In this document: positions 3,256 through 55,256 of the stretch, piece after piece | How the letters are laid out: each line of letters starts with the position of its first letter | Numbering within the stretch: the stretch's first letter is position 1 | Position numbers and translations under genes: made by a program | The notes under the pieces: model-generated | The model's input: only the letters and a program-made list of their open reading frames with translations | Told to the model about the DNA's origin: nothing | Databases searched by the model: none | From: Lepisosteus oculatus | Taxonomy: Eukaryota > Chordata > Actinopteri > Semionotiformes > Lepisosteidae | Direction of reading: 5' to 3' | Length of the DNA stretch: 64,000 nt | NCBI RefSeq assembly: GCF_040954835.1 | Contig: NW_027167714.1 | Location: 121,903 to 185,902 of the forward strand

Positions 3256-3337
3256 CGTAGTCGGCAGGATTTGAACCTGCGCGGGGAGACCCCAACAGAT
3301 TTCAAGTCTGTCACCTCAACCACTCGGCCACGACTAC
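3256..3337 (-). tRNA. tRNA-Ser (TGA)
   Basis: An 82-nt class II tRNA on minus. The acceptor GTAGTCG pairs with CGACTAC, the anticodon loop CTTGAAA gives TGA, the long variable arm is present, and the T arm is GCAGG TTCAAAT CCTGC. It decodes UCA (and UCN by wobble). A near copy lies at 26775 in the inverted array. Probably functional. Confidence 0.93.
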
Positions 3338-3464
3338 AGCGAGCACTGCGGCCGCTGCCTTCTTGCTACAATCGAACAGGGAGTGCGAGGCGGCGGCGGC
3401 AGTGGAGGCAACTTTTTTCAAGTTCGCTCTCCGTTTAAGAAACCTTTTACGCCATACGTGCAAG

Positions 3465-3482
3465 CACACACACACACACACC
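3465..3482. repeat. (CA)n microsatellite
   Basis: About eight CA dinucleotide repeats. The inverted array copy at 26624-26651 is longer, with (GT)n, as expected for a slipping microsatellite. Confidence 0.9.
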
Positions 3483-3934
3483 TCAGAGGACTTAAGGGTG
3501 GCTTCAAGTTGGAATGATAAAGTCTCCCCGTTCGGACATGAAAACAGAACGTTCTTAGACAGAAAGCAATCAACAACGGAGACATGTGGACGACGATTTT
3601 AGTCACTGCACTTTGAATAGCATTTTTACTCCAGTTACAGGAGATGCACCAATGGCCCTTGACCTACGCTCTTACCAATGCCTTGAACATTCAAACAAAA
3701 CAGCCCTCAAGTCCTGCGGTTTAATATAACGCTGTTACGTGTCGAGGCAGTATTTGACTCTGTCCTACCGTTGAGACACGGGGCGTATATGGAAACGAAC
3801 ACATGCTACGGATCGTCTCTAATCGGTCCCTACAGTTGGAAGGCTCCTTGAAGCGTGCACCCCCATCATTCATCTTTGCGCATCTGTGAAAGGTAGACTC
3901 TTGAGCAATGTTTGAGCCAGCTCTAAGGCAACTA

Positions 3935-4060
3935 GTGCTATTGGACAGACACCTCTGGAAGATCCTAAGAGTCTCTTAACACCACTTCCAGCAGCAAGCT
4001 TAATTGTTCGCTGGAGGTCTCCCACCCAGGTACTGACCAGGCAAAGAATCACCAGTACAT
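3935..4060 (-). mobile_element. 5S-rRNA-derived SINE fragment
   Basis: The minus strand contains a degenerate 5S internal-promoter segment (CCTGGTCAGTACCTGGGTGG and GAGACCTCC) followed by SINE body sequence (GCTGCTGGAAGTGGTGTTAAG). This is the pattern of 5S-derived fish SINEs (SINE3-like). Only the central part survives. The matching copy in the inverted array is at about 26050-26175. Confidence 0.65.
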
Positions 4061-4877
4061 TGAATGAGGAAGTTAATCCTGAAATCCAATTACATATCTC
4101 AAGGTAAGACAAATCCATAAGAACATGTCTTAGTATTACTTCGTTTACATTAGTATGGCACTGAGTTGGAGCTCCTCTTTAAGCTGTGGTTTAGTTTTGC
4201 ATTCATGTGTTTCTAGAGCAGTTATTTATGGGGGTGGGTGGGTCTTTCACAGAGGCTCAGGACAAATCCCCCGCCTGAAAGTCTAATGTGTGCGTTCAGA
4301 CAGTCACAGGTCAAGAGCCAGGCAGGAGGACAATGGACAGAAGAGCCAACGAACTAAAAATAAAAGAACAGATATGAAAAAGCCACCATCTTTTTCTTTT
4401 TGACATTTTCCGACTTTCATGCAAGCCAGGACAAAGTTGCTCGTAGCTACTTGTGGATTCAAATACTCTATCGAGTGCTTTGATGAGTTTTTGCAATTTG
4501 ATTGTCGTCCTGTCAGCCTGTTTCTGTTTTTTTTTTTTTCAATCTAGGGATGGAAAGTATGAGGGAAATGATGGAGCAATCAATAACCGCTCCGGAAAAA
4601 TGGCAGAAAGAAATGGTCCGTCACTAAGGACATTTGTGAAGCAGAGGAGTGACATCACCACAAAGGCGACACATTCTGCTGATGGTTTTGGTGAATAATG
4701 ATTGAGGCGCGTTAAGAGAAAGGTAGCTGTGTCAGCATGCGTAGGCTGCAAAGGATCAAGCAAAGGTTTACTCCATGCTGAAAAGAGAAGAAAAGAAGCA
4801 CAACGTTTCGACTGTGGAGCCTTCTGCGCCATCTTCTTTAGCGGTGATGATGTTTACATTGGAAAAACTGAGACATG
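4061..4877. other. Spacer, no gene seen
   Basis: No gene recognised. It includes a T-rich run near 4527-4540 that sits at the boundary of the tandem unit, and a dispersed tail motif at 4777-4820. Repeated inverted at about 25232-26045. Confidence 0.5.
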
Positions 4878-4884
4878 CGTCCCT

Positions 4885-4945
<61 letters not shown>

Positions 4946-4951
4946 AGAGAC
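4878..4951 (-). tRNA. tRNA-Asn (GTT), second array copy
   Basis: 74 nt, same acceptor, anticodon and T-arm sequence as the copy at 363-436, with all stems paired. It lies about 145 bp from the breakpoint where the tRNA unit joins LINE sequence. Probably functional. Confidence 0.93.
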
Positions 4952-5096
4952 TGACAGACACTTGTGCTCCCTACATTTGCAGGTTTATGGTCAAAGAAAA
5001 CAATCACTTGCGCTTCTTGCAGCCGGCAATCTTTTTCCACTGACAACCAAGAAATGGATTTCATCTTTCACAAGCTGTATGGATTTTGAAATGTAT

Positions 5097-5666
5097 GGAC
5101 GATGCCAGGTGTCCCACAACACCACAGCGCCGACACACCTTTGGTTGTCCCACATAAAAAACATAGCCATTGCAGGCGCCCAGCCGGATTGTAGAGGGCA
5201 GGTGCCTTAAGCCTCCATTTACATTGTCCGGTAGCAAGCGAACCTCGAATTTCCTTGCTCCTGTTTTTATACCGTCAACATCTCTAACCTCAGTTCCATG
5301 GTGGACGGTGCAGTACTGCTTAAGCCAGGTGTGAATGTCCTCCGTCTTTGCCAGTTCCGAGAACATAACAACATGCACCGTTTTCCTCTCTCTCTGTGTC
5401 AGAGGCTGCAAGTTGATCTTCTCAAGGGCAGGAACTTTCCCTCTTTTTGCCTCAAACACATCCACACATTGTTCAAACAGAGAATAGGTAGCAAAAACAA
5501 CCTCAAATGCTTTCTGACCTGGGAGAGCGAAGATGAAATCCAAGTGCCGAGGTTCAAAGCCACGTTCCTTCTGTAACACTTTTCTGCTGAACTGCATACG
5601 ATCCATGAAGAGGTCATCCAAAAGCTCAAAACGTACAGCATTCTTGCGGGATCCAAAGGTTGCCAT
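5097..5666 (-). pseudogene. LINE ORF1 N-terminal fragment
   Basis: Open from the ATG at 5666 (MATFGSRKNAV...) for about 190 codons, matching the ORF1 N-terminal region of the full element. The end falls inside the first CCHC knuckle (C-R-R-C-G..H). The frame also stays open upstream through the U1 fragment and U5 gene, but that is read-through of RNA-gene DNA and not part of the protein. No RT or endonuclease remains, so it cannot move by itself. Confidence 0.8.
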
Positions 5667-5733
5667 CTCAAACTGCAAAACAAACACTGCTTCCACAAAA
5701 CAAGAAAACAATCCAACTACTCTAACTACAGGC
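5097..5733 (-). mobile_element. 3'-truncated piece of a Tx1-like LINE
   Basis: On minus, this is a near copy of the first ~640 bp of the full LINE at 49987-55132: the short 5' leader and the first ~190 codons of ORF1. It ends just after the start of the first zinc knuckle, where a ~10-bp filler joins tRNA-unit spacer. Upstream of its 5' end are the same 29-nt U1 fragment and U5 gene as at the full copy. The shared flank says it arose by segmental duplication of the U5/U1/LINE locus, not by separate retrotransposition. Confidence 0.85.
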
Positions 5734-5762
5734 TGATCAAGGTATCTCCCCTGCCAGGTAAG
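5734..5762 (-). pseudogene. U1 snRNA 5' fragment (nt 4-32)
   Basis: The minus strand carries CTTACCTGGCAGGGG and then GATACCTTGATCA, exactly U1 nucleotides 4-32 including the 5'-splice-site recognition sequence. The first three U1 bases (ATA) are replaced by CGG. It is directly followed by the LINE 5' end. The rest of U1 is absent here. Confidence 0.85.
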
Positions 5763-5897: not shown

Positions 5898-6015
5898 GCA
5901 CTCTGGTTTCTCTTCATCTCGTACAAATCTTTTGCCTTTTACTAAAGATTTCCATGGAGAGGAACATGAATGAGTTCCATACAATTTTTGTGCTTCCCTG
6001 CCTTCGGGTGGGGCG
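5898..6015 (+). ncRNA. U5 snRNA gene
   Basis: Strong match to vertebrate U5. It shows 5' CACTCTGGTTTCTCTTC, the invariant loop GCCTTTTAC flanked by the pairing stem AAATCTTT/AAAGATTT, then GGAGAGGAAC, an Sm site AATTTTTG, and a 3' stem closed by TTCG. U5 aligns exon ends in the spliceosome through loop 1. A snRNA 3' box follows ~12 bp downstream. Its 5' end faces the U1 fragment head to head at 135 bp. The first two bases differ from the usual AT. Likely functional or recently so; the exact 3' end is estimated. Confidence 0.88.
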
Positions 6016-15002: not shown

Positions 15003-17353
15003 GGTCTAGGTCCAGGTCCCTGTTTGTGAAACAGGCAAATGACTGTCTCAGGGGCCCATTCCTCATTCTCAAGACACATGTATGCAGTATGTACACCGTG
15101 CATTGAGCAATAGGGACTGAATACACCACAGGTAAGGTTAGAAGTCATTCTGAGGTGCCACATGTGAGGGATACAGCTAGGCATCCGAAATGTAGGGTTT
15201 GAGACCCTTCAGGAGTACTGCATCCTTTGAGACAGACCCGTGCATGTTAAACAAATGATCATTTCTTTCGGCATTAGGGACTAAATATACTAAACATATG
15301 ATGCTAAAATGTTATTTTCACATATATTAATGTAATAAATGATTGCTTATGCTTTAGAAACAAATCTAATTAAAATAAAAGCTTAAGTTTTGTATTTATC
15401 TTGTACCATAGAACATGATTTTCTTTGTATTTCAAGCCCACAAAGTGTCCAAATGACGCACTACATGATATAAGGAAGATTATCACATGCATATCGGTAT
15501 TATCTTTCTTATGAAAATGCATTCCTTTCATTACCTTTTACTTTTTAAAATGAACTCAAATTGAGTATAATGTAATAATTTAAGTAGAATAGATTCTAAT
15601 AATATAATGATCCAGTGTTTTGCACTACTTCACTGCTTCACTGCTCTATGCCATCTGGAAATAAATCCTCAGACTGCTTACTGCCCTGGGCATGTACCAA
15701 TAAATTACAGGAGCACATCTATATATCACTGCGTTGAAGCAGGAGACACAATCACTGCAAACACATCCTAGATACAGTGTTCCAGCACCTTTGACCTCAT
15801 CCAGAACGTATCATTTCTTGAAAGGGATTGCTGTCCGAATGCACATCTGAATCCCAAACAGAATCTCTAGTAAAATACGATCATTTGTGAAACAGGCAAA
15901 TGACTGTCTCAGGGGCCTATTCCTCATTGTCAGACACATGTATGGAATGCTTTCACCGTGCATTGAGCAATAGGGATTAAAAACACCGCAGGTAAGGTTA
16001 GATGTCATGTTCTATGATCATTTCTTTCAGCATTAGGGACTAAATATACTAAACGTATGATGCTAAAATGTTATTTTTACATATATTAATGTAATAAATG
16101 ATTGCTTATGCTTTATAAACAAATCTAATTAAAATAAAAGCTTAAGTTTTGTATTTATCTTGTACCATAGGACATGATTTGCTTTGTATTTCAAGCCCAC
16201 AAAGTGTCCAAATGTTCTATGATCATTTCTTTCAGCATTAGGGACTAAATATACCAAACGTATGATGCTAAAATCCTGAAAAAAGGATGTGCTCCATCTC
16301 GTCAGTAGATTGGATTCCAAAACTGATTTGGGTCAATATACATTACCTTTGAAATTAAAGTACAGTCTACTGTAGGGAACCATCAACTTAGAAAGCATTG
16401 GCCTTCCCTGGGGGTCAGGTAGGTGCAAAAGATAAACCTTTATCCTATCTTTATCTTAAGATAAGTGGCCAAGCAGTATTTTTCCAAGTTTCACCAAGCA
16501 CATCATGTTGCCATAGTAGACAAAGTTCTATAAAATGTTAAATAACTTTTAAAAAAAGCATCTTGGTCTTACAGTACTGTACAAGGTGAATTAAACTGTC
16601 CCTGGTAATAAAAAGTAATTAGAAGCATCTCAGAAACTTTATCTCTAGAAACATTAGCTGTTTTATATCATGTAATTTAGTGTGATGTTGTCAGAATTCA
16701 AGGACATTAGCACACACAGAAATTGGTTCAGTTAAATCTAAAAAACACAGCTAAACATGGGTTTAAATGTAACAGAAGTCTTACCTCTTGTCAAAAGATT
16801 TAATTCAAGAAGCGATGTAATAAATGATTGCTTATGCTTTATAAACAAATCTAATTAAAATAAAAGCTTAAGTTTTGTATTTATCTTGTACCATAGAACA
16901 TGATTTTCTTTGTATTTGAAGCCCACAAAGTGTCCAAATGATGCACTACATGATATAAGGAAGATTATCACATGCATATCGGTATTATCTTTCTTATGAA
17001 AATGCATTCCTTTCATTACCTTTTACTTTTTAAAATGAACTCAAATTGTGTATAATGTAATAATTTAAGTAGAATAGATTCAGGTAGGAAATATAGAGTC
17101 ATGATGTTTATGGCTGACATCATTTCACATGGGTGAATTTTAAGCTAAGAAATAAAAACATTTACAATGAAGATACCATTGCTTAATTTTAAATGCCTTT
17201 AAAAAATAAATACCTCCTGAGAATAATTTGCCACTCCCAGATCCTTGGTAAGGTACTGTTTGAATCCAATCAGGAGAGGAGCATCCAGGGAGTGCTTTCT
17301 ATAGAGTCCAGCTTGGGCCACTCTCTTCCGGCCTGCTGATACTTTTTAACTAC
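15003..17353. other. AT-rich spacer with internal repeats
   Basis: No gene called. A ~150-bp AT-rich segment (TGATGCTAAAATG... to AAGCCCACAAAGTGTCC) is repeated at about 15290-15460, 16060-16215 and 16815-16940. 17215-17330 is the reverse complement of the coding-like stretch at 62648-62764. The whole region mirrors 62640-64000 in inverted orientation. Confidence 0.55.
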
Positions 17354-18460
17354 TCAGGGCCTGTAAGGATATAAAACACCGGTTTAAACATTTTAGACCT
17401 ATAAGACAAATTAGAATTTTAGTAAAAAATAGATACATCTGAAAAATAAAAAGTCTTACTGCTGATAGAGTTCTTCAGAGCTCACATCTTCCCCTTCCTT
17501 ATCCGCTTCTGTTTCAGTTTCTAGAGCAGCCTCTGGCATCTCTTCCTCCTGGACTGCGGCCTCTTGCTCAGGGCCGCTGGAATGCAGGTAGATTCTTTTC
17601 AACATGCTTTTACATAATATGTTGTAACAATGATTTCAAAAAGAAACTACAGAAGCCTTACAGATTAAAAATATCTCACCTTGCCAATGTGTCTTCAGGC
17701 TTCCCATGTACAAAAAGGCCCAAGGACTCTAGCAGTCTTACAACCACTATCCTGTTTGCCTCACCAGACACGATCTCTATTCTGTGGTAATCCACGATGA
17801 CCCCGTTCTTCAGGTGATTCATCATGTCCTCCCTCGCCTGTTGAGAGGCCATCCTGATGTTTTCTGCCGTGGCGTGCTTCATACACGCCCTCTTCAAGTG
17901 AGCAGGAAGCTGATCAAGAGTATTCAGGCACATCTTGCACACCAGGGGAATCCTCGCGGGTTTCCTTTGAAAATAAATAATACCATCTGTGTATAGAAAC
18001 AAGCTAAGACTGATTTCTTAAATTATCCTTAATTTTCTCTCTCATAGTTTGAGCATAATGATTTTATTGCATTTATATAAGAATTGCTCATTGCTCCTAA
18101 ATAAATAATGGTTTCATAAAAAAGTGAACACTTGGTCTCAGTCACAGACTTTCCAATAGAAGCCATTGTGGAGTTCAGCAACTGCAGGTCCTAGAAGTGG
18201 GGAAGGAATTTTAAAAGAGAAATTGAATTACAATACAGAAGGAATGGCTGAGGGATCACTGAAATATATATATACAAATTCCAAAGACTGAGTCCATATA
18301 GAAACAACTACCTTTCATTTTCAGTATAAGAAAAAAAAAACATTATCTTCCAAAGCATCATAAAATTGTCCCTTCTTCCAGACTCTACTTCTCTCTTGTA
18401 GTAGTATAGCAGACCTTTCCAGGTGAGCAGATCACAGAGTCCGAAATGAGCTTCCTCCAT
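17354..18460 (-). pseudogene. Small spliced gene, minus copy (splice donors damaged)
   Basis: Five exons on minus can be traced: A 18347-18460, B 18132-18190, C 17680-17964, D 17460-17576, E 17354-17360. Joined in frame they give about 193 codons, the same as the copy at 61526-62624. Exon C holds a C..C..H-L-K-R-x-C pattern suggestive of a small zinc-binding fold, then a basic/helical region; exon D is acidic (many E and D). Two lesions show: the exon A donor reads ATAATG in place of GTAATG, and exon B's donor has lost 4 bp, leaving GTGTTC. I do not recognise the family. This copy is probably inactive. Confidence 0.6.
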
Positions 18461-18908
18461 CAAGCAAAGTACCTGAACATGACTCTGTCTTCATAAAAGC
18501 GCCCCTGTAATAAAGAAATTAAATCCGAAATCAAGAGGGCAGTTGCCTACTGAAATACAAGAAGTCATCAATTTTAACCTAGCAACACATTAAAGGCTGC
18601 ATCTATACAAGTACGATTCTAGAAATGCTCACCAGATTACGTTTTAAGAAGGAACTGCGCCTCAGGTTCCGCCGAGATCTTAACTCGGATGGCAGGATTC
18701 AGAGTCCGGAGTGCGGACTGATGGCGCACGGAGGGTCCATATACTGTGGATCCCTCAGTGATCTTCCGCGTATTCAAACCGCCAGCGTGTGACTCCCCTG
18801 TCCCCGTGACCTCATTGCTCTGCTCTCTCCTCTGTGCAGCTGAGCCCGACTCACGGTAAAATGGAAAAAAAATATGCCCTCGACGTGAGATTTATTCTGG
18901 AGCGAGCC
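18461..18908. other. Upstream region of the spliced gene
   Basis: Holds a conserved segment (about 18600-18890) shared with 10030-10340, 48800-49060 and 61100-61370. It may include the promoter and an untranslated first exon, but no core element can be assigned. Confidence 0.35.
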
Positions 18909-18967
18909 AGTGTTGCGCATAGCTGCCTTCAAAGCAGTTAACCCAGGTTCGATTCCCGGCCAACGCA
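18909..18967 (+). pseudogene. tRNA-Gly fragment with TCA anticodon
   Basis: The 3' two-thirds of a tRNA-Gly(TCC) remain: anticodon arm, T arm TTCGATTCCCGG and CCAACGCA. The acceptor 5' strand and D arm are lost. The loop CTTCAAA gives TCA rather than TCC. The mirror copy is at 61020. Confidence 0.75.
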
Positions 18968-19790
18968 GTTACGAATGTTTTCAAATGCTGTCATGAGCCT
19001 TGGATTGTGACTAGCAAAGCGAAGCCTTTTGAAAGAGCTAAAGCACTGCAAAACGGAATTGAAGGAGAATCTTACAGGGGATTCTGAGCAGAGTCTGCAT
19101 ACATGCAGTCAGATAAAGGTGCTGAAAGCTTGAGCTACTCTCAATGTCATGCTGCCCTTCCCCGGAGTAAATCTGTTACATTGTAAGAATGCTTCTGGCA
19201 GGTTCAAAAAGAGACCCTTGTTAATTGGAGAAATCAATGATTTCGAATGAATTCTGTATGCGTTAAAAGACAGCTATACACAGAAAACATGCAGGACACT
19301 GCTCATGATGTTTCCCGAGCAGAAACACAGTGCGTTTTTCCAAGCCATTTGACAAAGCCCACCCACTGAAAACTGCAGCAGATCGTGTAAAGACGTTTAA
19401 CTTTGTAACTACTGCACGCACAGGAAGCAGAATAAATTCCTCTTTTCAAACTGTCAAAGGTTTGCTTTGCGAACGCTGCAGGACATCGCACAATATCTTT
19501 TGAACGGGGACAAACCATTTCTTATGGGGCGCAGTAAGTACAGACGTTTAAAAAGCTCCACTCATGCCGACGATGCAGCATGAAGAAGCGCAACCTAACT
19601 TTTGACAGACAAAAGCCGGGCGCCGCTACGAGCAATATGAAATCAAACTGACAGCACACGGCGTTTCGCGCTGACTCAAAAGTGATCTCGACAGACGCTG
19701 TTCTCTGCATAACGCTGAAAGAGTTAAAGAGCGTTTCTGTTGACACGTAACAAGCTCGTTTCTTTCTACCATGATGTCACCATGACCAAA

Positions 19791-19803
19791 TCTGTCTTTA
19801 AAC
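19791..19803 (-). promoter_or_regulatory. snRNA 3' box of U4
   Basis: The minus strand reads GTTTAAAGACAGA, 8 bp beyond the U4 3' end, matching the 3'-box consensus. Confidence 0.85.
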
Positions 19804-19811
19804 ACCTTGCT

Positions 19812-19956
19812 CAGTCTCTGACGAGACTGTCAAAAATTGCTTTCGCCGATTGTATTGCAAACCGGCGGAAGCGGGGTATTGGGAAAAGTTTTCAACTAGC
19901 AATAATCGCGCCTCGGCTAAACCTCACAGGCTACGATACTGCCACTGCGCAAAGCT
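19812..19956 (-). ncRNA. U4 snRNA gene, array unit 1
   Basis: 145 nt on minus, same sequence as the U4 at 6242: AGCTTTGCGCAGTGG start, intact 5' stem-loop, Sm site AATTTTTG and 3' hairpin. The 3' box is at the proper distance. tRNA-Gly of the same unit lies downstream in + coordinates on the other strand. Likely functional. Confidence 0.95.
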
Positions 19957-20609
19957 GACGGTTGCCAGGCAACCGCGGGGATCCTATGGAAATCGTTATC
20001 GATCGTCTCATGGCATGTCGTTGCGGTAACGCTTCATATTTGTCGTCTTCTTCTTCTTCTAGCTTGAGGTTTTGAAGAATTTCATGACAGACAAGGGCTC
20101 CGTTGGGAACAAAGGGCGTTGTGAGAAAACCGTTGCTTATTTTCAGCAGCAGAAATACAACCCTTTAAATACAAGATGACAGAACAATGACGAAGGGCGT
20201 GCCGGGAGGAACTCATGCACTACAGAGGAAAGGGGGCGGGCACGTACAGTTCACATTCAAGCCACAAGTACTCTTCTCGGATGTTACACAAACAAATCCT
20301 AACGTCTTGAAAGCATTTCAGCATGTTTGTGTCCCACTTCCCGTGGCTGCAGGACGACTGACACGAACGGACAAACACAATCTGTGGCGTTTAGCGTGAC
20401 ATAGTCTTGCAGGCATCGTGCTGTCTCACTGCAATACTATACCGCTGGAGGAAACAGTCCATCTGGCCATGAAACTCATTTGAACGTCTAGCTACAGCAA
20501 CTAACAATATCATGATTTATTCAGGATGTGTGGAATCGGCACGTCCCGGAGACAGCTTCCGAAATCGTGAGCATTCTCTGGTGGTGTCCTGCAGAACGCC
20601 TGTGGGCGT

Positions 20610-24914: not shown

Positions 24915-25157
24915 CTCTCCGTGTCTTGTTGTGCCGAATGTCTCATTTCAGACAAACATGTACAGCTTGGTTCAGTTTAATGCAAGAATTCATTTCCTTT
25001 CTGGAATAACTTGTTTTTGAAGAAATCCATACAGCTTGTGAAAGATGAAATCCATTTCTTGGTTGTCAGTGGAAAAAGATTGCCGGCTGCAAGAAGCGCA
25101 AGTGATTGTTTTCTTTGACCAGAAACCTGCAAATGTAGGGAGCACAAGCGGCCGTCA

Positions 25158-25231
25158 GTCTCTGTGGCGCAATCGGTTAGCGTGTTTGGCTGTTAACCGA
25201 AAGGTTGGGGGTTCAAGCCCACCCAGGGACG
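25158..25231 (+). tRNA. tRNA-Asn (GTT), array copy
   Basis: 74 nt, acceptor GTCTCTG/CAGGGAC, loop CTGTTAA. A stem change (TTTGG) still pairs. The T stem is GGGGG/CCACC, one mismatch against the copy at 363. Confidence 0.85.
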
Positions 25232-26049
25232 CATGTCTCCATTTTTCCAATGTAAACATCATCACCGCTAAAGAAGATGGCGCAGAAGGCTCCACAGTCA
25301 AAACGTTGTGCTTCTTTTCTTCTCTTTTCAGCATGGAGTAAACCTTTGCTTGATCCTTTGCAGCCTACGCATGCTGACACAGCTGCCTTTCTCTTAACGC
25401 GCCTCAATCATTATTCACCAAAACCATCAGCAGAATGTGTCGCCTTTGTGGTGATGTCACTCCTCTGCTTCACAAATGTCCTTAGTGACGGACCATTTCT
25501 TTCTGCCATTTTTCCGGAGCGGTTATTGATTGCTCCATCATTTCCCTCATACTTTCCAACCCTTGATTGAAAAAAAAAACAGAAACAGGCTGACAGGACG
25601 ACAATCAAATTGCAAAAACTCATCAAAGCACTCGATAGAGTATTTGAATCCACAAGTAGCTACGAGCAACTTTGTCCTGGCTTGCATGAAAGTCGGAAAA
25701 TGTCAAAAAGAAAAAGATGGTGGCTTTTTCATACCTGTTCTTTCATTTTTAGTTCGTTGGCTCTTCTGTCCATTGTCCTCCTGCCTGGCTCTTGACCTGT
25801 GACTGTCTGAACGCACACATTAGACTTTCGGGCGGGGGATTTGTCCTGAGCCTCTGTGAAAGACCCACCCACCCCCATAAATAACTGCTCTAGAAACACA
25901 TGAATGCAAAACTAAACCACAGCTTAAAGAGGAGCTCCAACTCAGTGCCATACTAATGTAAACGAAGTAATACTAAGACATGTTCTTATGGATTTGTCTT
26001 ACCTTGAGATATGTAATTGGATTTCAGGATTAACTTCCTCATTCAATGT

Positions 26050-26175
26050 AGTGGTGATTCTTTGCCTGGTCAGTACCTGGGTGGGAGACCTCCAGCGAAC
26101 AATTAAGCTTGCTGCTGGAAGTGGTGTTAAGAGACTCTTAGGATCTTCCAGAGGTCTCTGTCCAATAGCACTAGT
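26050..26175 (+). mobile_element. 5S-derived SINE fragment
   Basis: Inverted-array partner of the fragment at 3935-4060: CCTGGTCAGTACCTGGGTGG, GAGACCTCC and GCTGCTGGAAGTGGTG are seen in order. Confidence 0.65.
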
Positions 26176-26623
26176 TGCCTTAGAGCTGGCTCAAACATTG
26201 CTCAAGAGTCTACCTTTCACAGATGCGCAAAGATGAATGATGGGGGTGCACGCTTCAAGGAGCCTTCCAACTGTAGGGACCGATTAGAGACGATCCGTAG
26301 CATGTGTTCGTTTCCATATACGCCCCGTGTCTCAACGGTAGGACAGAGTCAAATACTGCCTCGACACGTAACAGCGTTATATTAAACCGCAGGACTTGAG
26401 GGCTGTTTTGTTTGAATGTTCAAGGCATTGGTAAGAGCGTAGGTCAAGGGCCATTGGTGCATCTCCTGTAACTGGAGTAAAAATGCTATTCAAAGTGCAG
26501 TGACTAAAATCGTCATCCACATGTCTCCGTTGTTGATTGCTTTCTGTCTAAGAACGTTCTGTTTTCATGTCCGAACGGGGAGACTTTATCATTCCAACTT
26601 GAAGCCACCCTTAAGTCCTCTGA

Positions 26624-26651
26624 GGTGTGTGTGTGTGTGTGTGTGTGTGTG
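26624..26651. repeat. (GT)n microsatellite
   Basis: About 13 GT units, expanded relative to its mirror at 3465. Confidence 0.9.
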
Positions 26652-26774
26652 CACGTATGGCGTAAAAGGTTTCTTAAACGGAGAGCGAACTTGAATAAAG
26701 TTGCCTCCGCTGCCGCCGCCGCCTCGCACTCCCTGTTCGATTGTAGCAAGAAGGCAGCGGCCGCGGCGCTCGCT

Positions 26775-26856
26775 GTAGTCGTGGCCGAGTGGTTAAGGTG
26801 ACGGACTTGAAATCCGTTGGGGTCTCCCCGCGCAGGTTCAAATCCTGCCGACTACG
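26775..26856 (+). tRNA. tRNA-Ser (TGA)
   Basis: 82 nt, loop CTTGAAA on ACGGA/TCCGT, acceptor GTAGTCG/CGACTAC, T arm GCAGG TTCAAAT CCTGC. A compensated change relative to 3256 (CAGA to CGGA with its partner) keeps the anticodon stem paired. Likely functional. Confidence 0.93.
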
Positions 26857-28412
26857 GCGTCCTTTGCATTTGGTTGCGTGCATGCGTGTAAAAGGACCAG
26901 CGCCGTTTCGTTTTCGCTGGGACCTTTAACACTCTAAATCGCCTGGACCCGCAGCCTGTGAAATCGATTCTTCAGCACCCACAAAGGACGCTTTGCCGCT
27001 GGACACAGATACCGATGCTTTTCTGCAACGAGCTTTCCAGCTGAATTTTCTCGGCAGCTCCGTACTGAACCTGTTCTCCATTGCAACATAGCGGAGGCTC
27101 GTCACGTCTATAGCAAGGCTGTGTAGGACCGCATACGCCACAGTGACTTGTACACAGACCACATGAAAGGCAAGCAAAATACACTTTTAAAATTCCAAAG
27201 ACTCACAAGGTCAGAGGAACAGCGATGACCTGAACAGATCTGTTACAGAAGTCTAGGCTGACCTTTTTAGAGCTGTAATTGCATTTTTGTTTAATAGAAG
27301 ATCAAATCTACTCGCATGTACCAGCACCTTACAGTTTATTGATGTTAATTCTGTTTAAGTAATAAGATTGCTAACGATGTTGGACTTTAGCCGGTGTTTT
27401 TTAGACCAAATTGCTTACACTTCTGTAAGGAATACACAGTACGTGCCTTTGTCAGTCATTGCTCACCATACCTGTAACTTTCTTATCTAACTCACTTCCT
27501 CAAATGGTGAAGGTCCACAAACATAAATGAAAAAAAAACCCTTGTTGTAGATGAGGTGCACAAAAAAGAAGCCCCTGATAGTGTATAACACATTTGTACT
27601 ATTGCAGAGACACATGTAACATATATATATACTGTATATATATATGAAACAGAAATAGAAACAGAAACAGGAATCGCTTACTCACCTGGAGAATCTCTGT
27701 AGGAATATCTAGCATTTATCAATGGAAATAAAAGCTGCTTTAATACAGTGCATGTTTAAACTCAAACCCTCAGCTGCTGTTCTTGTTTGTTTTGGGACAA
27801 ATTGCAACTGAGCATCGCATGAGCCGTTACGTACCCTTATCTGTTAGGGAATTTCAAGGGAGGAGTTAGGTCAGAATGGGTAGGCTGCAAAACAACAAGT
27901 AAAGATTTATTTCAAGATGAAACGTTGTGGCGGTTTTCTTATCTTTTCAGCATGGACTAAACTTTTACGTGTTCTTTATATGCTATATGTGTATATATTA
28001 GCACCAATGTTGTTCTTAAAAACTAACATGAAATTGTCAGGGACATTCAGCTATATACAAAGACGAGACAGACAAAGTAATAATTCTGTATTAACGTGGC
28101 CTACATATTGACGCAATGATCGAACTAACTGACATGTTCTGATTCAGATCCCCTGCAGTTCATGCCAATTAGAACAATAGCAATGCTGAGTCCTCCCCAC
28201 CCTACCGAGCACAAATTCAGCTGCTCTCCAGTTCTGTTCTGCATGTTTTTTCATTGCAATTGAGCTCGGAGCTGGAGATGATCTCCATACAGTTCTGTGT
28301 TCACTAGCCCGCACTTGCGTGCTAATTTACGGGTTGTGGCAAATGCTTTTCTATAGTTCATATACATGACGGCAACCTGTTACCGAGGAACCTGAGAGGT
28401 TTAAAAGCCTCA
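26857..28412. other. Spacer, no gene seen
   Basis: Mirror of 1702-3255. A dispersed tail motif lies at 27905-27955. No gene recognised. Confidence 0.5.
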
Positions 28413-28485
28413 CGAGCCAGGCAGGACGCGAACCTACAATCTTCTGATCCGAAGTCAGACGCGTTATCCATTACGCCACTGGCCC
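28413..28485 (-). tRNA. tRNA-Arg (TCG), array copy
   Basis: 73 nt on minus, same stems and loop CTTCGGA as the copy at 1629. The T loop is TTCGCGT rather than TTCGAGT, a change at the conserved A58 region. Confidence 0.88.
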
Positions 28486-29345
28486 ATAGGACATGCGCTT
28501 GCACTCCACCACAGAGAGCTCTACACTGCTACTAGTAGTACACTTCCCCATCTAAATTTTCACAGCAAGAAACTTGTGTTTCCTACTATTTTTATCAGGT
28601 TTAAAATATCATCTCCTTAAAACAGAAAAAGTGTTGATGTGTCGTGCTGAAATTCCGATTGATTTTGAATTCAAAGAAAAAAGGTTTTCTTCCAAAACAC
28701 CATGAAATTGTCACATCTTGCAGACAATAGGTGTATTCCATGTTGAAAAGAGAAGACAGAAAACCATGGAGCCTTTTACAGGTGTGAGGCTTCTTCAGGT
28801 GTGAGAAGATCTCACAGTCGAAACGCTGTGTTTCCGTTCTTCTCTTTTCAGCATGCAATAAACCTATTGCTTGTTCCTTTGCAGCCGAGGCATGCTGACG
28901 TAGCTACCCAGCTGAACATCTTGCAGACTCTACAGTACTTCTCTCCTGTAGAAGTAAAGCAGGGCTTGCTGGGTGAGCTTTTGCTCCGGTAAATTAGGTC
29001 ACGTGTCATGTTAAATCACTTCTTCTAAACACAACATTTGCTGGTGCTAGCTTTCCCCATTAAAAAAAGAGACATTTCCCTTACAGTACATGACATATCG
29101 TTTTTATTCTATCAATAAGTATAGAAATTAAACAAAAGAAAAAATGGTGTCGCCAAAGAATGGGAGGTGTCAAGGGCATTGAGCTCCTTGGACATGAAAA
29201 GTGCCCGATAAATGCCATTTCTCATCATTTCTCTTGGCGTCAGTTCTGCTATTAAATGGGACGGAGGCAACGGGCTCAGAGAGCAGGTTAAGTGCACACC
29301 GAACGCAGATGTGTCCAAGTGTCTGTAAAAGCGCGGTGCTCCGCT
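28486..29345. other. Spacer of the inverted tRNA unit
   Basis: Mirror of 754-1628 with opposed tail motifs near 28700-28860. No gene seen. Confidence 0.5.
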
Positions 29346-29419
29346 GGCGCTGTTCCCTAGTGGCTTAAAGTGCCCGCCTAGTAAGCAGGCGATCCTGGGT
29401 CTGAATACCAGCGGTGCCT
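29346..29419 (+). tRNA. tRNA-Thr (AGT)-like
   Basis: 74 nt, nearly identical to 680-753, including the C-A mismatch in the anticodon stem and the TCTGAAT T loop. Doubtful function. Confidence 0.72.
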
Positions 29420-29630
29420 CTCTCCGTGTTTTGTTGTGCCGAATGTATCATTTCAGACAAACATGTACAGCTTGGTTCAGTTTAATGCAAGAATTCATTT
29501 CCTTTCTGGAATAACTTGTTTTTGAAGAAATCCATACAGCTTGTGAAAGATGAAATCCATTTCTTGGTTGTCAGTGGAAAAAGATTGCCGGCTGCAAGAA
29601 GCGCAAGTGATTGTTTTCTTTGACCATAAA

Positions 29631-29631
29631 C

Positions 29632-29669
<38 letters not shown>

Positions 29670-49705: not shown

Positions 49706-49822
49706 CGCCCCACCCGAAGGCAGGGAAGCACAAAAATTGTATGGAACTCATTCATGCTCCTCTCCATGAAATCTTTAGTAAAAGGCAAAAGATTTGTACG
49801 AGATGAAGAGAAACCAGAGTGC
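49706..49822 (-). pseudogene. U5 snRNA copy with 1-nt deletion
   Basis: Minus-strand U5 with intact loop 1 GCCTTTTAC and Sm site AATTTTTG. One base is missing after the loop stem (AAAGATTTCATGG where the copy at 5898 has AAAGATTTCCATGG), and GGAGCATG replaces GGAACATG. Possibly still folds, but less fit than the copy at 5898. It faces the U1 fragment head to head. Confidence 0.75.
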
Positions 49823-49957: not shown

Positions 49958-49986
49958 CTCACCTGGCAGGGGAGATACCTTGATCA
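49958..49986 (+). pseudogene. U1 snRNA 5' fragment (nt 4-32), upstream half of split U1
   Basis: CTCACCTGGCAGGGG and GATACCTTGATCA match U1 nt 4-32 with one T to C change in the splice-site-recognition region. The LINE starts at the next base. Upstream lies the U5/U1 intergenic sequence, not the U1 promoter seen at 57.5-57.8 kb. Confidence 0.88.
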
Positions 49987-50053
49987 GCCTGTAGTTGGAG
50001 TAGTTGGATTGTTTTCTTGTTTTGTGGAAGCAGTGTTTGTTTTGCAGTTTGAG

Positions 50054-51481
50054 ATGGCAACCTTTGGATCCCGCAAGAATGCTGTACGTTTTGAGCTTTT
50101 GGATGACCTCTTCATGGATCGTATGCAGTTCAGCAGAAAAGTGTTACAGAAGGAACTTGGCTTTGAACCTCGGCACTTGGATTTCATCTTCGCTCTCCCA
50201 GGTCAGAAAGCATTTGAGGTTGTTTTTGCTACCTATTCTCTGTTTGAACAATGCGTGGATGTGTTTGAGGCAAAAAGAGGGAAAGTTCCTGCCCTTGAGA
50301 AGATCAGCTTGCAGCCTCTGACACAGAGAGAGAGGAAAACGGTGCATGTTGTTATGTTCTCGGAACTGGCAAAGACGGAGGACATTCACACCTGGCTTAA
50401 CCAGTACTGCACCGTCCACCATGGAACTGAGGTTAGAGATGTTGACGGTATAAAAACAGGAGCAAGGAAATTCGAGGTTCGCTTGCTACCGGACAATGTA
50501 AATGGAGGCTTAAGGCACCTGCCCTCTACAATCCGGCTGGGCGCCTGCAATGGCTATGTTTTTTATGTGGGACAACCAAAGGTGTGTCGGTGCTGTGGTG
50601 CTGTGGGACACCTGGCATCGTCCTGCACTGTGAAATGCTGCAAGACCTGTGGCAAACAGGGACATTTAGCCTCTGACTGTTCAATGCTGCCAAAGTGCAA
50701 TTTATGTGGCTCGGAAGGACACGTTTTTAAGAACTGCCCTCACGCCTACGCCAATAAACTCAAAATGAGAAAGGATGAGGCAGTGCTTGTTTCAGCCAAA
50801 CCGGCCCGAAAAGCCAAAGCAAACAACAAGTCAAACAAAGAACCCTTGTTGGACAAAGAGTCTCAGCCTCCAGCCAGGATCAGTCCTGCTGTGGCTCCGG
50901 GGCCGGTGGAAGAGAAATCCACTACCCCCCCACAACCGCAGACTGCACCAGACAAGCACGAGGGTTTGAAAACCCCCGAGAACAGCGAGGACCCCTCCCC
51001 CACTCCTGCTCCTCAGAACGAGGGCCAGTGTGGGGCCCCCCGGTGGAGCGGGTCCAGCGACGATACCCAGGATTCAGCGGAGCTGCTTTTCTCAGACTCT
51101 GCAAGTGCTACAGATGCCCTCCTCTCCTCCATCCAGTCCATCACGGAGGATCTGCAACAGCTGGTGGGTGAGGGGGAAGAGGAGACTGGTGCATCGGCTG
51201 CACCCCTTTCCCCTCAGTGCTCCCAGGAGCTGGACTTGAGGAAAAGGAAAAATGACTCTGTTTTCTACCCGAGCGAGGAGGAAGGAGAGCATGGCGATGG
51301 GGACAGCTGGAACCCCTCCACCCCTCCCTCTACCCCCTTCCTTGAAATGGACTCCGTGAATGCTTTTACTGCTGCCACCCTGATGAAGGCTCATTCAGAG
51401 GATGGCTGGCAGGAAATTGGTAAGAAGAAAAAGAAAAAGAAGAAGGTAACAGGTGAGACCGAAGAGAAATGTGTTTTGTAA
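50054..51481 (+). CDS. LINE ORF1 (gag-like, CCHC zinc knuckles)
   Basis: 475 aa from ATG 50054. The start is chosen because the matching region begins MATFGSRK in both LINE copies and lies right after the leader; an upstream in-frame ATG at 49754 would read through U5 and U1 DNA. Residues 1-175 form a conserved N-terminal domain typical of Tx1-type ORF1. Three CCHC knuckles follow: C178-C181-H186-C191, C196-C199-H204-C209 and C215-C218-H223-C228. Residues ~235-460 are proline- and acid-rich, ending in a lysine run. By family it binds element RNA in an RNP. No stop or frameshift is seen. Its end overlaps the open frame of ORF2. Confidence 0.9.
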   Translation: MATFGSRKNAVRFELLDDLFMDRMQFSRKVLQKELGFEPRHLDFIFALPGQKAFEVVFATYSLFEQCVDVFEAKRGKVPALEKISLQPLTQRERKTVHVVMFSELAKTEDIHTWLNQYCTVHHGTEVRDVDGIKTGARKFEVRLLPDNVNGGLRHLPSTIRLGACNGYVFYVGQPKVCRCCGAVGHLASSCTVKCCKTCGKQGHLASDCSMLPKCNLCGSEGHVFKNCPHAYANKLKMRKDEAVLVSAKPARKAKANNKSNKEPLLDKESQPPARISPAVAPGPVEEKSTTPPQPQTAPDKHEGLKTPENSEDPSPTPAPQNEGQCGAPRWSGSSDDTQDSAELLFSDSASATDALLSSIQSITEDLQQLVGEGEEETGASAAPLSPQCSQELDLRKRKNDSVFYPSEEEGEHGDGDSWNPSTPPSTPFLEMDSVNAFTAATLMKAHSEDGWQEIGKKKKKKKKVTGETEEKCVL

Positions 51482-51507
51482 AGACTGGTTCCACTTTCTT
51501 ATGTAAT

Positions 51508-54500
51508 ATGGCTCTAAACATAATTTCTCTTAACACCAGAGGTATCAATGACAGAGTTAAATGCCAGTCTGTCTTTGATTACCTCCAGCAGAGAGAGGGA
51601 GATGTGTTGATGTTGCAGGAGTGTGCTTTAGCCTATCAAGAGAGGTATAAAAGCTTTGAAGATAGGTGGGATAAAGGGCCTTCTGTTTGGTCAGGGGACA
51701 ATAACAACAGAGCCTCTGGCGTGGCCATTCTTTTCAAAGGATGGGCTTTCAAATTGAAAAGTATTCAGAGGGTCATAGATGGCAGGTTGCTGTGTGTGGA
51801 TGTGGAATGGGGGACCGTTAACCTGCGGCTAATCAATGTGTATGGTCCTACTGACGTGGGAGGAAGGGTGGAGCTACTCAAGGCACTCTCTCCCCTATTG
51901 TTAAGTAGCACAGACGTGATAGTGGGAGGGGATTTTAATTGTATCTTAGAGCACACAGACAGGCAGTCTAGCTCTCCGATAAAATTGGATTCCAGCTCAC
52001 TGGCCCTGCAAAACTTAGTTCAAGACTTTAAACTCTCAGACACATATAGATGTATATATCCCACAACAGCAGGATATGCATGGTCAGGGAGGAATAGCAG
52101 CTCCAGAATTGACTATTGCTTTGTCTCAGAGAGAGTGAAAGTTGTTGGGGTCACTCTTCAGCCTGTCTTCTTCTCAGATCATCAGGCTTTAGGGTGTAGA
52201 GTGGAACTCCAGGGCGGGACTGTCTTTGGCCCAGGCCTCTGGAAACTCAACACAAAGCTGCTAGAGAACGAGGGGGTAGTATCCCGCTACAAGGAGAAAC
52301 TATCACAGTGGCTGTCCTTGCAGTGTCTGTACGGGTCAGTAGGAGAGTGGTGGGAGGAGGTGAAGATGAGGACAAAGGCCTTTTTCATGGCTGAGGGAAG
52401 GAAGGCTGCTGCCAGACGGAGAGGAGTGCTAGCCAGGAAACAGAGGCAGCTGCAGCGTCTCTACACGATGCTGCACAGTGGCTTCGATGTGCTCGAGGAT
52501 ATCACCCTTTTAAAAAAGGACATCCGGAGCATAGCCGAAGAAAGTAGTCGAGGAGTGCTGTTAAGAGGCAGAGTGCAGTTCTTGGAAGAAAATGAGAAGT
52601 GTACTCGCTTCTTTTTCAGGAAAGTGGTAGGCTCCAAGTCTGTCATGGAAAGTGTAGTTGATGAGGAGGGACGAGAGAGAACAGAGCCGAGTGCTATCCT
52701 CTCCTGCACCAAGGCCTTCTACTCAAGACTGTACAGCTCTACAGAGGTAAAGGATGAAGAAATTCATTTTTTTACCTCAAAGCTAGAAAACGTTTTGAGT
52801 GAAGAAGATAGGGAAGTACTTGAGAGGGATTTCACAGTAGAAGAGCTGAGACAGGCTATGGAGAGCTTACAGAAGGGGAAAACTCCAGGTGCTGACGGGC
52901 TCCCTAAAGAATTTTATTGCACCTTTTGGGATCTGCTTCAGGATCCGCTACTGGTCCTATTCGAGGAAAGATATAAGACAGAATTGCTGCCTGACTCCTT
53001 AAGAGAAGGCACTATTTCTCTCTTGTTTAAGAAAGGAGCAAAAAATGACATAAAGAACTGGAGACCCCTCAGCCTGTTAGGCGTGGACACTAAGATCCTG
53101 TCCAAAGCCCTTTTCCTGCACCTACAAAATGTAGTGGCCTCACTGGTAGGGAAAGAACAGACTTGTGGGATAGCAGGACGCCTGATGAGCGACAACCTGG
53201 CCTTGTTGAGGGATGTCTGTCTGTACTCTGAGGATCGCTCCCTCCCTCTTTGCATTTTAGGTGTAGACCTAGAAAAGGCCTTTGACCGCCTAAACCGGCA
53301 GTACTTAACATCGGGACTTGAGCACATGAAGTTTGGCCCCATCATGAGAAAGTGGATTAACCTGCTGTACACAGGTAGCAACAGCAGAGTCATGGTTAAT
53401 GGCAATAGATCACGCCCCTTTGAAGTCTGTTCAGGGGTGAGGCAGGGCTGCCCATTATCCCCCTTGTTATGCGTTTTGGCTATGGAGCCCTTAGCCTGTG
53501 CCTTGCGCCAGGATCAGGCCATTAATGGGATACCAGTGCCTGGAAGTGGGGGAGGAGAGGTAAAGACATCTCTATACATGGATGACGTCACCCTGCTCCT
53601 CTCTGACAATGCCTCAATTAGCAGAGCTCTGCAGTGCTGTGATCGTTTCTCTTTGGCTTCCTCCGCAAAAATTAACAAATCTAAGAGTGAGATTTTTTAT
53701 CAGAACTGGAGGGAGCCAAAAGAAGGACATGATCTCAGGCTGCAAGAGAAGAGAATTAAGGTCCTGGGGGTGTATTTTGGAGAAGAGATGGGAACAGTAA
53801 ATTGGCAGAACAAATTGCCAATCTTAAACAAAAAACTGATGCAATGGAAGGACCGAGACCTCACCATGACAGGGAAGGTGCTGGTCATCAAAGCCGAGCT
53901 CTTGCCTGTCTTGAATTTTCTGGCTTCTACCTTCCCAATCCCACACCGTGTTGCGGCGGTGATGAGGAGATTGATGTTTCAATTTCTATGGGGTGGGAAG
54001 CAGGAAAGACTCAGAAGGGAAATAATGTACAGGCCGCTACCCTCAGGGGGGAAGTCTGTCCCAGATATTGCTACGAAGCTGCTGTGCATTTTCCTGGCCT
54101 CTGTGCTGAGAGGCTTTGCAACAGCACCTGCAGCGCGTACCTGGACTTATTTTTCCAGGCTCTGGGTAGGTAGGGAGGTGTTCAGAGTGTGGGGTGTCAG
54201 ACCCAAGCTGGACGTCCCACTCTCTGACACATGCCCTGCAATTTATGGGACAGTTAAAAGTTTTCTAAGATCTCACCCAATTGGCCATATTCCCCTCCGA
54301 GATGTCAGCGTCCAAAAACTGGAAGATTTCATTGCACCCCAGAACAATAGGCAGACCCATGTGGGCATTTTAACATCAGCCCAAACAAGGAAGGTGTGGA
54401 AACACACATCCTCTAAGTTTCTGTGCAACATTCACAGAGATTTAGCCTGGAGTGTCGTCCACCAGTGCTTACCGGTACGAACTTTCTTGTACCGTAGGGG

Positions 54501-54927
54501 CCTCACCCCCAGCCCTCGCTGCGTTAGGGTGGGCTGCGGCGAGGAGGAGACTGTATCCCATCTCCTGTGGTCCTGCTTTTTTGCTAAGGCCTTCTGGGCA
54601 CAGTTTGAAGATTGGTTGCAGGCTCTCTCGCCCCAATTTACCCTGACCGCTGCTTTCGTCATATACGGCATCTCTCCTGTCAAACTTCCTCCTGACGTGT
54701 TTGACAGGATCTGGGCCGTGGTGAACAGTGGGAAAGTTGCCCTGTGGAGAGTGAGGAACATGGGGCTGTTCAAAGGCATCGAGATCCCAGTCAAGGCAGC
54801 AGGTAGCCTGGCCCTGTTCATCACCCGAGAGAACTATTACCTCAGAGATCTGTGGAGAGAAGGGAGGGAGGAAGCAGAAAATCTGTGGGAAATAGAGAGC
54901 ATAGGTCAATATCTCAAGAAACTGTGA
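51508..54927 (+). CDS. LINE ORF2 (APE endonuclease and reverse transcriptase)
   Basis: 1139 aa from ATG 51508 (MALNIISLNTRG), 26 bp after the ORF1 stop and in another frame; an ATG at 51469 would add 13 residues. The endonuclease comes first: N9-T-R-G, Q37-E38, V-Y-G-P at 111-114, G140-G-D-F-N144, S199-R-I-D202 and S223-D-H225, all catalytic blocks present. The RT has G-V-D-L-E-K-A-F-D around D587, R-Q-G-C-P-L-S-P, and Y690-M-D-D693 in place of the more common F/Y-A-D-D. The C-terminal part includes a C..C..H-L-L-W-x-C pattern. By family it nicks the target and primes reverse transcription there. No lesion is seen, so it may be active. Confidence 0.93.
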   Translation: MALNIISLNTRGINDRVKCQSVFDYLQQREGDVLMLQECALAYQERYKSFEDRWDKGPSVWSGDNNNRASGVAILFKGWAFKLKSIQRVIDGRLLCVDVEWGTVNLRLINVYGPTDVGGRVELLKALSPLLLSSTDVIVGGDFNCILEHTDRQSSSPIKLDSSSLALQNLVQDFKLSDTYRCIYPTTAGYAWSGRNSSSRIDYCFVSERVKVVGVTLQPVFFSDHQALGCRVELQGGTVFGPGLWKLNTKLLENEGVVSRYKEKLSQWLSLQCLYGSVGEWWEEVKMRTKAFFMAEGRKAAARRRGVLARKQRQLQRLYTMLHSGFDVLEDITLLKKDIRSIAEESSRGVLLRGRVQFLEENEKCTRFFFRKVVGSKSVMESVVDEEGRERTEPSAILSCTKAFYSRLYSSTEVKDEEIHFFTSKLENVLSEEDREVLERDFTVEELRQAMESLQKGKTPGADGLPKEFYCTFWDLLQDPLLVLFEERYKTELLPDSLREGTISLLFKKGAKNDIKNWRPLSLLGVDTKILSKALFLHLQNVVASLVGKEQTCGIAGRLMSDNLALLRDVCLYSEDRSLPLCILGVDLEKAFDRLNRQYLTSGLEHMKFGPIMRKWINLLYTGSNSRVMVNGNRSRPFEVCSGVRQGCPLSPLLCVLAMEPLACALRQDQAINGIPVPGSGGGEVKTSLYMDDVTLLLSDNASISRALQCCDRFSLASSAKINKSKSEIFYQNWREPKEGHDLRLQEKRIKVLGVYFGEEMGTVNWQNKLPILNKKLMQWKDRDLTMTGKVLVIKAELLPVLNFLASTFPIPHRVAAVMRRLMFQFLWGGKQERLRREIMYRPLPSGGKSVPDIATKLLCIFLASVLRGFATAPAARTWTYFSRLWVGREVFRVWGVRPKLDVPLSDTCPAIYGTVKSFLRSHPIGHIPLRDVSVQKLEDFIAPQNNRQTHVGILTSAQTRKVWKHTSSKFLCNIHRDLAWSVVHQCLPVRTFLYRRGLTPSPRCVRVGCGEEETVSHLLWSCFFAKAFWAQFEDWLQALSPQFTLTAAFVIYGISPVKLPPDVFDRIWAVVNSGKVALWRVRNMGLFKGIEIPVKAAGSLALFITRENYYLRDLWREGREEAENLWEIESIGQYLKKL

Positions 54928-55132
54928 AAAACATTATCAAGTTTAAGTAAAGAATGTGATTTGCACCAGAAAAAAAGAAAATTGTTGCTATGTAACTGTT
55001 ACCATGTCAAAATGTAATGAGATGTGATCATATATACTGTTTTAAGTATGTATATGAATGTAAAGCTTTCTGATTTGTGATGTCCTGTATTTTTTTGTGA
55101 AAAGAAAATAAAGTTCTTAAAAATCGAAATCA

Positions 55133-55256
55133 GTTCACCCAGGGCGAGGCTCGGCCATTGCACTCCGGCTGTGCTGACCCCTGCGAATTCCCCAAATGAG
55201 GGAATCTCGACTGCATAATTTCTGGTAGTGGGGGACTGCGTTCGCGCTCTCCCCTG
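55133..55256 (+). pseudogene. U1 snRNA 3' part (nt 41-164), downstream half of split U1
   Basis: Continues U1 from GTTCACCCAGGGCGAGG through the Sm site AATTTCTGG and the 3' stem ending CTCTCCCCTG, near-identical to 57860-57983. One change is ATGAGGGAA for ATGTGGGAA. Together with 49958-49986 this is the gene interrupted by the LINE. Confidence 0.92.

What the first reader, a model, noticed from the sequence alone, without database searches (positions are those of the whole stretch)
49958..55256. Intact-looking LINE sits inside a U1 snRNA gene
The element is flanked by U1 nt 4-32 on the left and U1 nt 41-164 on the right, in the same order and strand, with 8 bp of U1 missing and no duplication. 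That is what a target-specific insertion into U1 would leave. Tx1-clade LINEs are known to target small-RNA genes such as U2 snRNA and 5S rRNA; whether a U1-targeting family is already described I cannot confirm from memory. Both ORFs are open, which suggests recent activity.
Basis: partly seen in the sequence, partly recalled or inferred. Interest (0 to 1): 0.85.

Follow-up and report, generated by a model that had tools for sequence, protein, structure and literature searches.

The report
Jumping gene that targets U1 genes
A fish genome, probably a gar's, carries a near-intact copy-and-paste jumping gene inside a gene for the splicing RNA U1, and related jumping genes in a goby and a reedfish also begin right after a piece of U1, which suggests a group of elements that uses U1 genes as its landing site.

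Summary
A 5.15-kb two-ORF LINE (49987-55132) lies between U1 nt 4-32 and U1 nt 41-164, same order and strand, 8 nt missing, no duplication; both ORFs are open. A second, truncated copy of the left joint lies at 5097-5762, and an uninterrupted U1 at 57820-57983. ORF1 is 96% identical to an alligator-gar protein, so the window is probably gar DNA. ORF2 has endonuclease, reverse transcriptase and zf-RVT domains; named kin include TX1-type proteins. Independent support came from proteins: related ORF1 records of a goby (P0134) and a reedfish (P0150) carry N-terminal stretches that read as the first ~46 and ~27 nt of U1, in different frames. Best reading: a U1-targeting group of Tx1-type LINEs in ray-finned fish, nicking U1 between nt 40 and 41. 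No U1-targeting LINE was seen in the papers searched; Repbase was not available. The left flank is odd: a U5 gene 135 bp away and no recognisable U1 promoter.

The parts
49958..49986 (+). U1 snRNA nt 4-32, left flank of the element
   Evidence: BLAST against the full-length U1 at 57820: 28 of 29, nt 7-32 exact
49987..50053 (+). 5' UTR of the LINE, 67 nt
   Evidence: Between the left joint and the ORF1 ATG; no ribozyme family found here
50054..51481 (+). ORF1, 475 aa: two ZCCHC3-type RNA-binding domains and a zinc knuckle
   Evidence: Pfam PF23057, PF23058, PF00098; 96% identical over 379 aa to P0121 of Atractosteus spatula
51508..54927 (+). ORF2, 1139 aa: apurinic-type endonuclease, reverse transcriptase, zf-RVT
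   Evidence: Pfam PF03372, PF00078, PF13966; start chosen by alignment with relatives; motifs
54928..55132 (+). 3' UTR, 205 nt, AATAAA at 55107-55112, no poly(A) tail
   Evidence: Sequence, AATAAA position
55133..55256 (+). U1 snRNA nt 41-164, right flank of the element
   Evidence: 123 of 124 identical to U1 at 57820
49707..49822 (-). U5 snRNA gene, head to head with the left U1 piece, 135 bp away
   Evidence: Rfam RF00020, 79 bits
5734..5762 (-). Second copy of the left U1 piece, nt 4-32
   Evidence: 29 of 29 identical
5097..5733 (-). Second copy of the LINE 5' end, 637 nt, cut off inside ORF1
   Evidence: BLAST and alignment
5898..6014 (+). U5 gene beside the second copy of the left joint
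   Evidence: Rfam RF00020, 89.9 bits
57820..57983 (+). Uninterrupted U1 snRNA gene that shares its 3' flank with the interrupted one
   Evidence: Rfam RF00003, 169.3 bits; 55133-56372 = 57860-59099, 98.9%

Best explanation
This is a full-length or near full-length LINE of a Tx1-type group that inserts by preference into U1 snRNA genes. Its endonuclease nicks the bottom strand of U1 between nt 40 and 41, the freed end primes reverse transcription of the LINE RNA from its 3' end, and the top strand is cut upstream at a less fixed place (after nt 32 here), which removes 8 bp. Shown: the two joints, the open ORFs with their motifs, and U1-encoded stretches upstream of related ORF1s in two other fish. 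Inferred: the cut positions (from the joints, by analogy with other LINEs); that the LINE, lying in sense inside U1 with a 5' UTR of only 67 nt, is transcribed from the U1 promoter in intact insertions; that the repeated U1 genes let the host tolerate the loss; and that the left flank of this copy was rearranged.
For: Collinear U1 pieces at both ends with 8 nt missing. The left joint stands in two diverged copies. Goby P0134 has YLPGRGDTMITKVVH, 12 of 15 identical to gar U1 nt 2-46 in frame 2, 0 of 2000 shuffled U1s score as high; reedfish P0150 has MLTWQGRYL, 8 of 9 identical to U1 nt 1-27 in frame 1, 1 of 2000. Frames differ between goby and reedfish, so the likeness lies in DNA, not in a shared protein start. 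Two of the three ORF1 records that reach at least 26 residues upstream of the start motif show U1. Named kin of ORF2 include TX1-type proteins. Another LINE of the Tx1 type, Keno, is in print as U2-specific (PMC4640811 section 6; PMC6136364 passages).
Against: One insertion locus only is seen in DNA; the genome-wide test failed. The goby and reedfish evidence is from predicted proteins and shows the left side only; introns in those gene models cannot be excluded. The goby match was found by scanning 147 proteins for typed U1-encoded peptides, so it is after the fact; one of 200 shuffled U1s also shared an 8-residue peptide with some protein of the set. The left flank shows no similarity to the neighbouring U1's 5' flank and no recognisable enhancer motif.
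Confidence: 0.8

Rival explanations
1. A LINE without site preference happened to land in a U1 gene inside a small-RNA cluster.
For: Only one insertion event is seen in DNA here; U1 sequence makes up about 0.5% of this window, so within such a cluster a chance hit is not impossible.
Against: U1 also precedes related ORF1s in a goby and a reedfish, near the same place in U1.
Confidence: 0.1
2. The LINE carries a U1-derived head as part of its own RNA (copied from a U1-LINE co-transcript or gained by template switching), so that U1 at the 5' side does not mark the target.
For: In gar the U1 likeness starts at nt 4, the sequence upstream is not like the neighbouring U1's 5' flank and a U5 gene lies 135 bp away. 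The element is cut from a U1 that continues on the right side at nt 41, so a head alone does not explain the right flank.
Against: The right flank is U1 nt 41-164 with 1.2 kb of U1 3' flank. The left boundaries differ between species (about nt 27, 32, 43-46), which does not look like one fixed head.
Confidence: 0.07
3. The joints are errors of assembly in a repetitive array.
For: The region is full of near-identical repeats (118 pairs of at least 150 bp); no reads were available.
Against: The left joint stands in two copies that differ from each other; the two halves fit one U1 with 8 nt missing; U1 also precedes related ORF1s in other fish.
Confidence: 0.02

Closest known systems
Keno (Tx1-type LINE in U2 snRNA genes)
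   Same: Apurinic-type endonuclease LINE in an snRNA gene of fish; its 3' joint is in the first third of the RNA (U2 nt 39, PMC4640811 section 6), here U1 nt 41.
   Different: U2, not U1.
Utopia (LINE in U2 snRNA genes)
   Same: Fixed 3' boundary and variable 5' boundary in an snRNA gene (PMC4640811 section 6).
   Different: Restriction-like endonuclease; U2.
Tx1L of Xenopus laevis (P0081)
   Same: Two-ORF LINE with the same ORF2 domains; 31% identity over 77% of ORF2. A target-specific member of the Tx1 clade (citation seen).
   Different: In another part of the tree; its target is not an snRNA gene (recalled).
Dada-U1 (DNA transposon in U1 genes of fish)
   Same: Inserts in U1 genes of ray-finned fish (PMC3706591 and PMC8869645 passages).
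   Different: DNA transposon with a 6-bp duplication GCGAAT, which starts at nt 91 of the U1 in this window; here a reverse-transcriptase element at nt 32/41.
R2 (LINE in 28S rRNA genes)
   Same: Comparable as a way of life: fixed bottom-strand and variable top-strand cut (PMC5035012 passages) and transcription with the host gene (abstract starts of PMC3414825 and PMC3774820 in the listing).
   Different: Restriction-like endonuclease and 5' ribozyme; no ribozyme family was found at the 5' end here.

Membership tests
Tx1-clade LINE | Two ORFs, ORF2 with apurinic-type endonuclease and reverse transcriptase | tested here: met
   Pfam hits of ORF1 and ORF2
Tx1-clade LINE | Groups with Tx1L apart from L1 in a tree | tested here: inconclusive
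   Tree of 65 rows holds Tx1L but no L1 outgroup. Scores: 383 bits to Tx1L, 297 bits to human L1 ORF2p
U1-specific LINE | Both ends lie in one U1 gene, in order | tested here: met
   U1 nt 4-32 and 41-164
U1-specific LINE | Several independent copies share the 3' joint | not tested
   The genome search did not complete (17 calls)
U1-specific LINE | Related elements also lie in U1 | tested here: inconclusive
   Left side only, from predicted proteins: 2 of 3 ORF1 records that extend upstream
Keno | 3' flank is U2 from nt 39 | tested here: not met
   3' flank is U1 from nt 41; Keno site from PMC4640811 section 6
Keno | Sequence kinship with Keno families | not testable with these tools
   No Keno sequence identified in the collections; Repbase not available
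Dada-U1 | DNA transposon, 6-bp duplication GCGAAT in U1 | tested here: not met
   ORF2 is a reverse transcriptase; no duplication; other site
R2 / Utopia | Restriction-like endonuclease | tested here: not met
   Apurinic-type endonuclease domain PF03372

The most novel reading that the evidence does not exclude
U1 targeting is old and widespread in this LINE group: the reedfish, gar and goby ORF1s with U1 at their 5' side do not form one clade but are spread over the ORF1 tree, so the ancestor of the group may already have lived in U1 genes. These elements have very short 5' UTRs (about 57, 67 and 93 nt in goby, gar and reedfish) and live off the U1 promoter; their transcripts start at U1 nt 1, and the U1 leader can be carried into new copies, as the gar left joint, which starts at U1 nt 4 beside a U5 gene, may show.
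Probability: 0.3. Interest if true: 0.78.

Novelty: new variant of a known kind. Interest (0 to 1): 0.6.

Why it matters
A 2015 paper lists only Keno and Utopia (U2), Dada-U1 and Dada-U6 as transposons reported to target snRNA genes (PMC4640811 passage). A LINE group that targets U1 would add a target for apurinic-endonuclease LINEs, offer a natural endonuclease with a defined site in a highly conserved repeated gene, and be a test case for whether a LINE can live off an snRNA promoter. It would also allow a comparison with Keno of how one LINE clade moves between snRNA targets. A practical point: gar ORF1 copies of this LINE are named 'ZCHC3 protein' in public records, a naming trap for anyone who studies that gene in fish.

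Tried and rejected
Genome-wide tabulation of right flanks: the search of the window's own genome did not complete in 17 identical calls (4, 5, 15, 22, 27, 32, 37, 42, 45, 54, 64, 73, 77, 81, 85, 87, 89).

DNA relatives in public collections: viral contigs with the single protein (6 stretches matched a pattern) and with alignment A3 (111), genome contigs with A3 (58); none of these encodes a relative. These collections are viral and prokaryotic, and the tool says that records of the window's own genome may be left out, so the result says little.

Likeness of the left flank to the neighbouring U1's 5' flank: in six comparisons (two copies, three lengths) the best local score was reached by 51 to 127 of 200 shuffles. 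A recalled PSE consensus did not tell the snRNA promoters apart (best scores 5 to 7 in all 12 places). A recalled SPH pattern with up to 2 mismatches matches about 230-250 bp upstream of 6 of 7 U4 genes but not between the U5 gene and ORF1; the nearest match is in a tRNA-His gene at 49535. The exact octamer occurs 241 bp upstream of U1 at 57820 and not near the left flank; overall it is no commoner than chance, 3 found against 4.25 expected.

U1-like sequence in the LINE's own 5' or 3' UTR: none above shuffles. Unusual fold of the 3' UTR: z -1.0, 30 of 200 shuffles at least as good. U2-encoded peptides (U2 recalled) at N-termini of the 150 proteins: none.

Full report
What is there. The element spans 49987-55132. 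Its left neighbour is U1 nt 4-32 (49958-49986), its right neighbour U1 nt 41-164 (55133-55256), in the same order and on the same strand; nt 33-40 are missing and nothing is duplicated. The reference is the full-length U1 at 57820-57983 (Rfam 169 bits). ORF1 (50054-51481, 475 aa) has two RNA-binding domains of the ZCCHC3 type and a zinc knuckle; ORF2 (51508-54927, 1139 aa) has endonuclease, reverse transcriptase and zf-RVT domains. The ten motifs looked for in ORF2, YMDD among them, are each present once. An AATAAA ends 20 nt before the 3' end and there is no poly(A) tail.

Second copy. The left joint recurs on the minus strand at 5762-5734, followed by 637 nt of LINE cut off inside ORF1; over 969 aligned positions, the U5 gene included, the copies are 98.3% identical. 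In 190 shared ORF1 codons they differ by 1 synonymous and 5 nonsynonymous changes, so at least one has drifted. At residue 35 the full copy agrees with 16 of 16 relatives and the second copy does not; at residue 180 the second copy agrees with the alligator-gar record and the full copy does not. The joint is older than the duplication, which speaks against an assembly error there.

Host. ORF1 is 96% identical (364 of 379) to P0121, 'ZCHC3 protein, partial [Atractosteus spatula]', a cluster of 13 sequences. The window is therefore probably from a gar; the species is not settled. It is a small-RNA cluster: 41 Rfam matches, namely 28 tRNA, 7 U4, 2 U5, 2 U1 and 2 5S.

Relatives of ORF2. 221 proteins were found, 120 listed. 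In a tree of 65 rows (the window and 64 of the 120 listed hits) the window sits with P0001-P0018 in a fully supported clade, next to a set with zebrafish, Boleophthalmus and Xenopus tropicalis rows; Tx1L is farther away. No L1 outgroup was in the tree. By score ORF2 is nearer to Tx1L (383 bits) than to human L1 ORF2p (297 bits).

U1 upstream of related ORF1s. The two ORF1 searches gave 30 proteins (27, three more). The start motif was found in 20 of the 30; 17 of these begin 4-10 residues before it and 3 reach at least 26 residues upstream. Of these three, goby P0134 reads NSYLPGRGDTMITKVVH, where YLPGRGDTMITKVVH is 12 of 15 identical to gar U1 nt 2-46 in frame 2 (0 of 2000 shuffled U1s and 0 of 1770 window pieces score as high); reedfish P0150 reads MLTWQGRYL, 8 of 9 identical to U1 nt 1-27 in frame 1 (1 of 2000 and 0 of 1715); the third, P0135, has only an antisense match that 8 of 2000 shuffles reach. 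Among all 150 proteins these two share the longest exact peptides with U1, 8 residues each; one of 200 shuffled U1s also gave an 8-residue peptide somewhere in the set. The search was partly after the fact: P0134 was first seen in a scan of 147 proteins for five typed U1-encoded peptides, P0150 in a protein search whose query included the gar U1 piece. The frames differ (goby frame 2; gar and reedfish frame 1), so the likeness is in the DNA. The goby residues NS before YLP would be encoded by AACTCA, the six bases that end at nt 1 of the gar U1 gene at 57820 (sequence); this is two residues only.

Mechanism. By analogy with other LINEs (established knowledge) the 3' joint marks the bottom-strand nick, here between U1 nt 40 and 41. 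The left joints vary: nt 32 in gar, about 27 in reedfish, 43-46 in goby (the last two from codons, so within about 3 nt). Variable 5' and precise 3' boundaries are described for Utopia and R2 (PMC4640811 section 6; PMC5035012 passages). The distance from U1 to the likely ORF1 start is short: 67 nt in gar, 54-57 nt in goby and 93 nt in reedfish if the gene models have no intron there. That leaves little room for an internal promoter; I infer, without a test, that intact insertions use the U1 promoter.

The left flank is not explained. A U5 gene lies head to head, 135 bp from U1 nt 4. U1 likeness starts at nt 4 in both copies, with CAG or CGG in place of ATA. There is no detectable likeness to the 5' flank of the U1 at 57820, and neither an octamer nor an SPH match with up to 2 mismatches between the U5 gene and ORF1 (motifs recalled), while the right flank is a 98.9% duplicate of the 3' flank of that U1. 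Either this U1 differed upstream, or the array was rearranged after the insertion, or the U1 piece came from the LINE's RNA.

Spread. In an ORF1 tree of 29 rows (the window and 28 of the 30 hits; P0146 and P0149 left out) gar, goby and reedfish do not form one clade: goby falls with P0125, P0135 and P0148, whose targets are unknown, and gar with P0121. The reedfish branch is very long and its place unsure, and the join of goby with P0135 is flagged as doubtful. U1 targeting may be ancestral to the group or have arisen more than once.

Literature. Ten searches of the held library were made; two searches listed 20 of 427 and 20 of 293 papers. No title or start of abstract in the listings, and no passage that I read, describes a LINE that targets U1. 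Seven papers were opened, in part: PMC4640811 (passages and section 6), and passages of PMC8869645, PMC3706591, PMC6136364, PMC10886601, PMC3747384 and PMC5035012. [quoted passage not shown] Kojima and Fujiwara 2004 was seen only as a citation. Repbase and most subscription papers were not available, so the family may already be catalogued there.

Noticed in passing
50054-51481: ORF1 matches the Pfam models of the ZCCHC3 RNA-binding domains (E 1.7e-23 and 2e-17), and gar copies of it are named ZCHC3 protein in public records. The cellular gene ZCCHC3 and these LINE ORF1s may share an origin; not tested.
   Followed up: partly
57847-57860 (U1 nt 28-41): Gar U1 has GATCAAG 13 nt before the insertion joint; U2 (letters recalled) has GATCAAG 14 nt before the Keno/Utopia joint at nt 39. 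It could hint at how one LINE clade moved between snRNA targets, but the goby peptide fits GATCACG rather than GATCAAG.
   Followed up: no
1-64000: The array is heavily rearranged: 118 pairs of repeats of at least 150 bp, among them inverted pairs of 4.6 kb at 97.5-97.8% (464-5086 with 25023-29635; 15961-20585 with 59416-64000).
   Followed up: no
49707-49822 and 5898-6014: Both U5 genes of the window have only 135 bp of their own upstream sequence before the U1 piece and the LINE, without a recognisable enhancer motif; whether they are expressed is open.
   Followed up: partly
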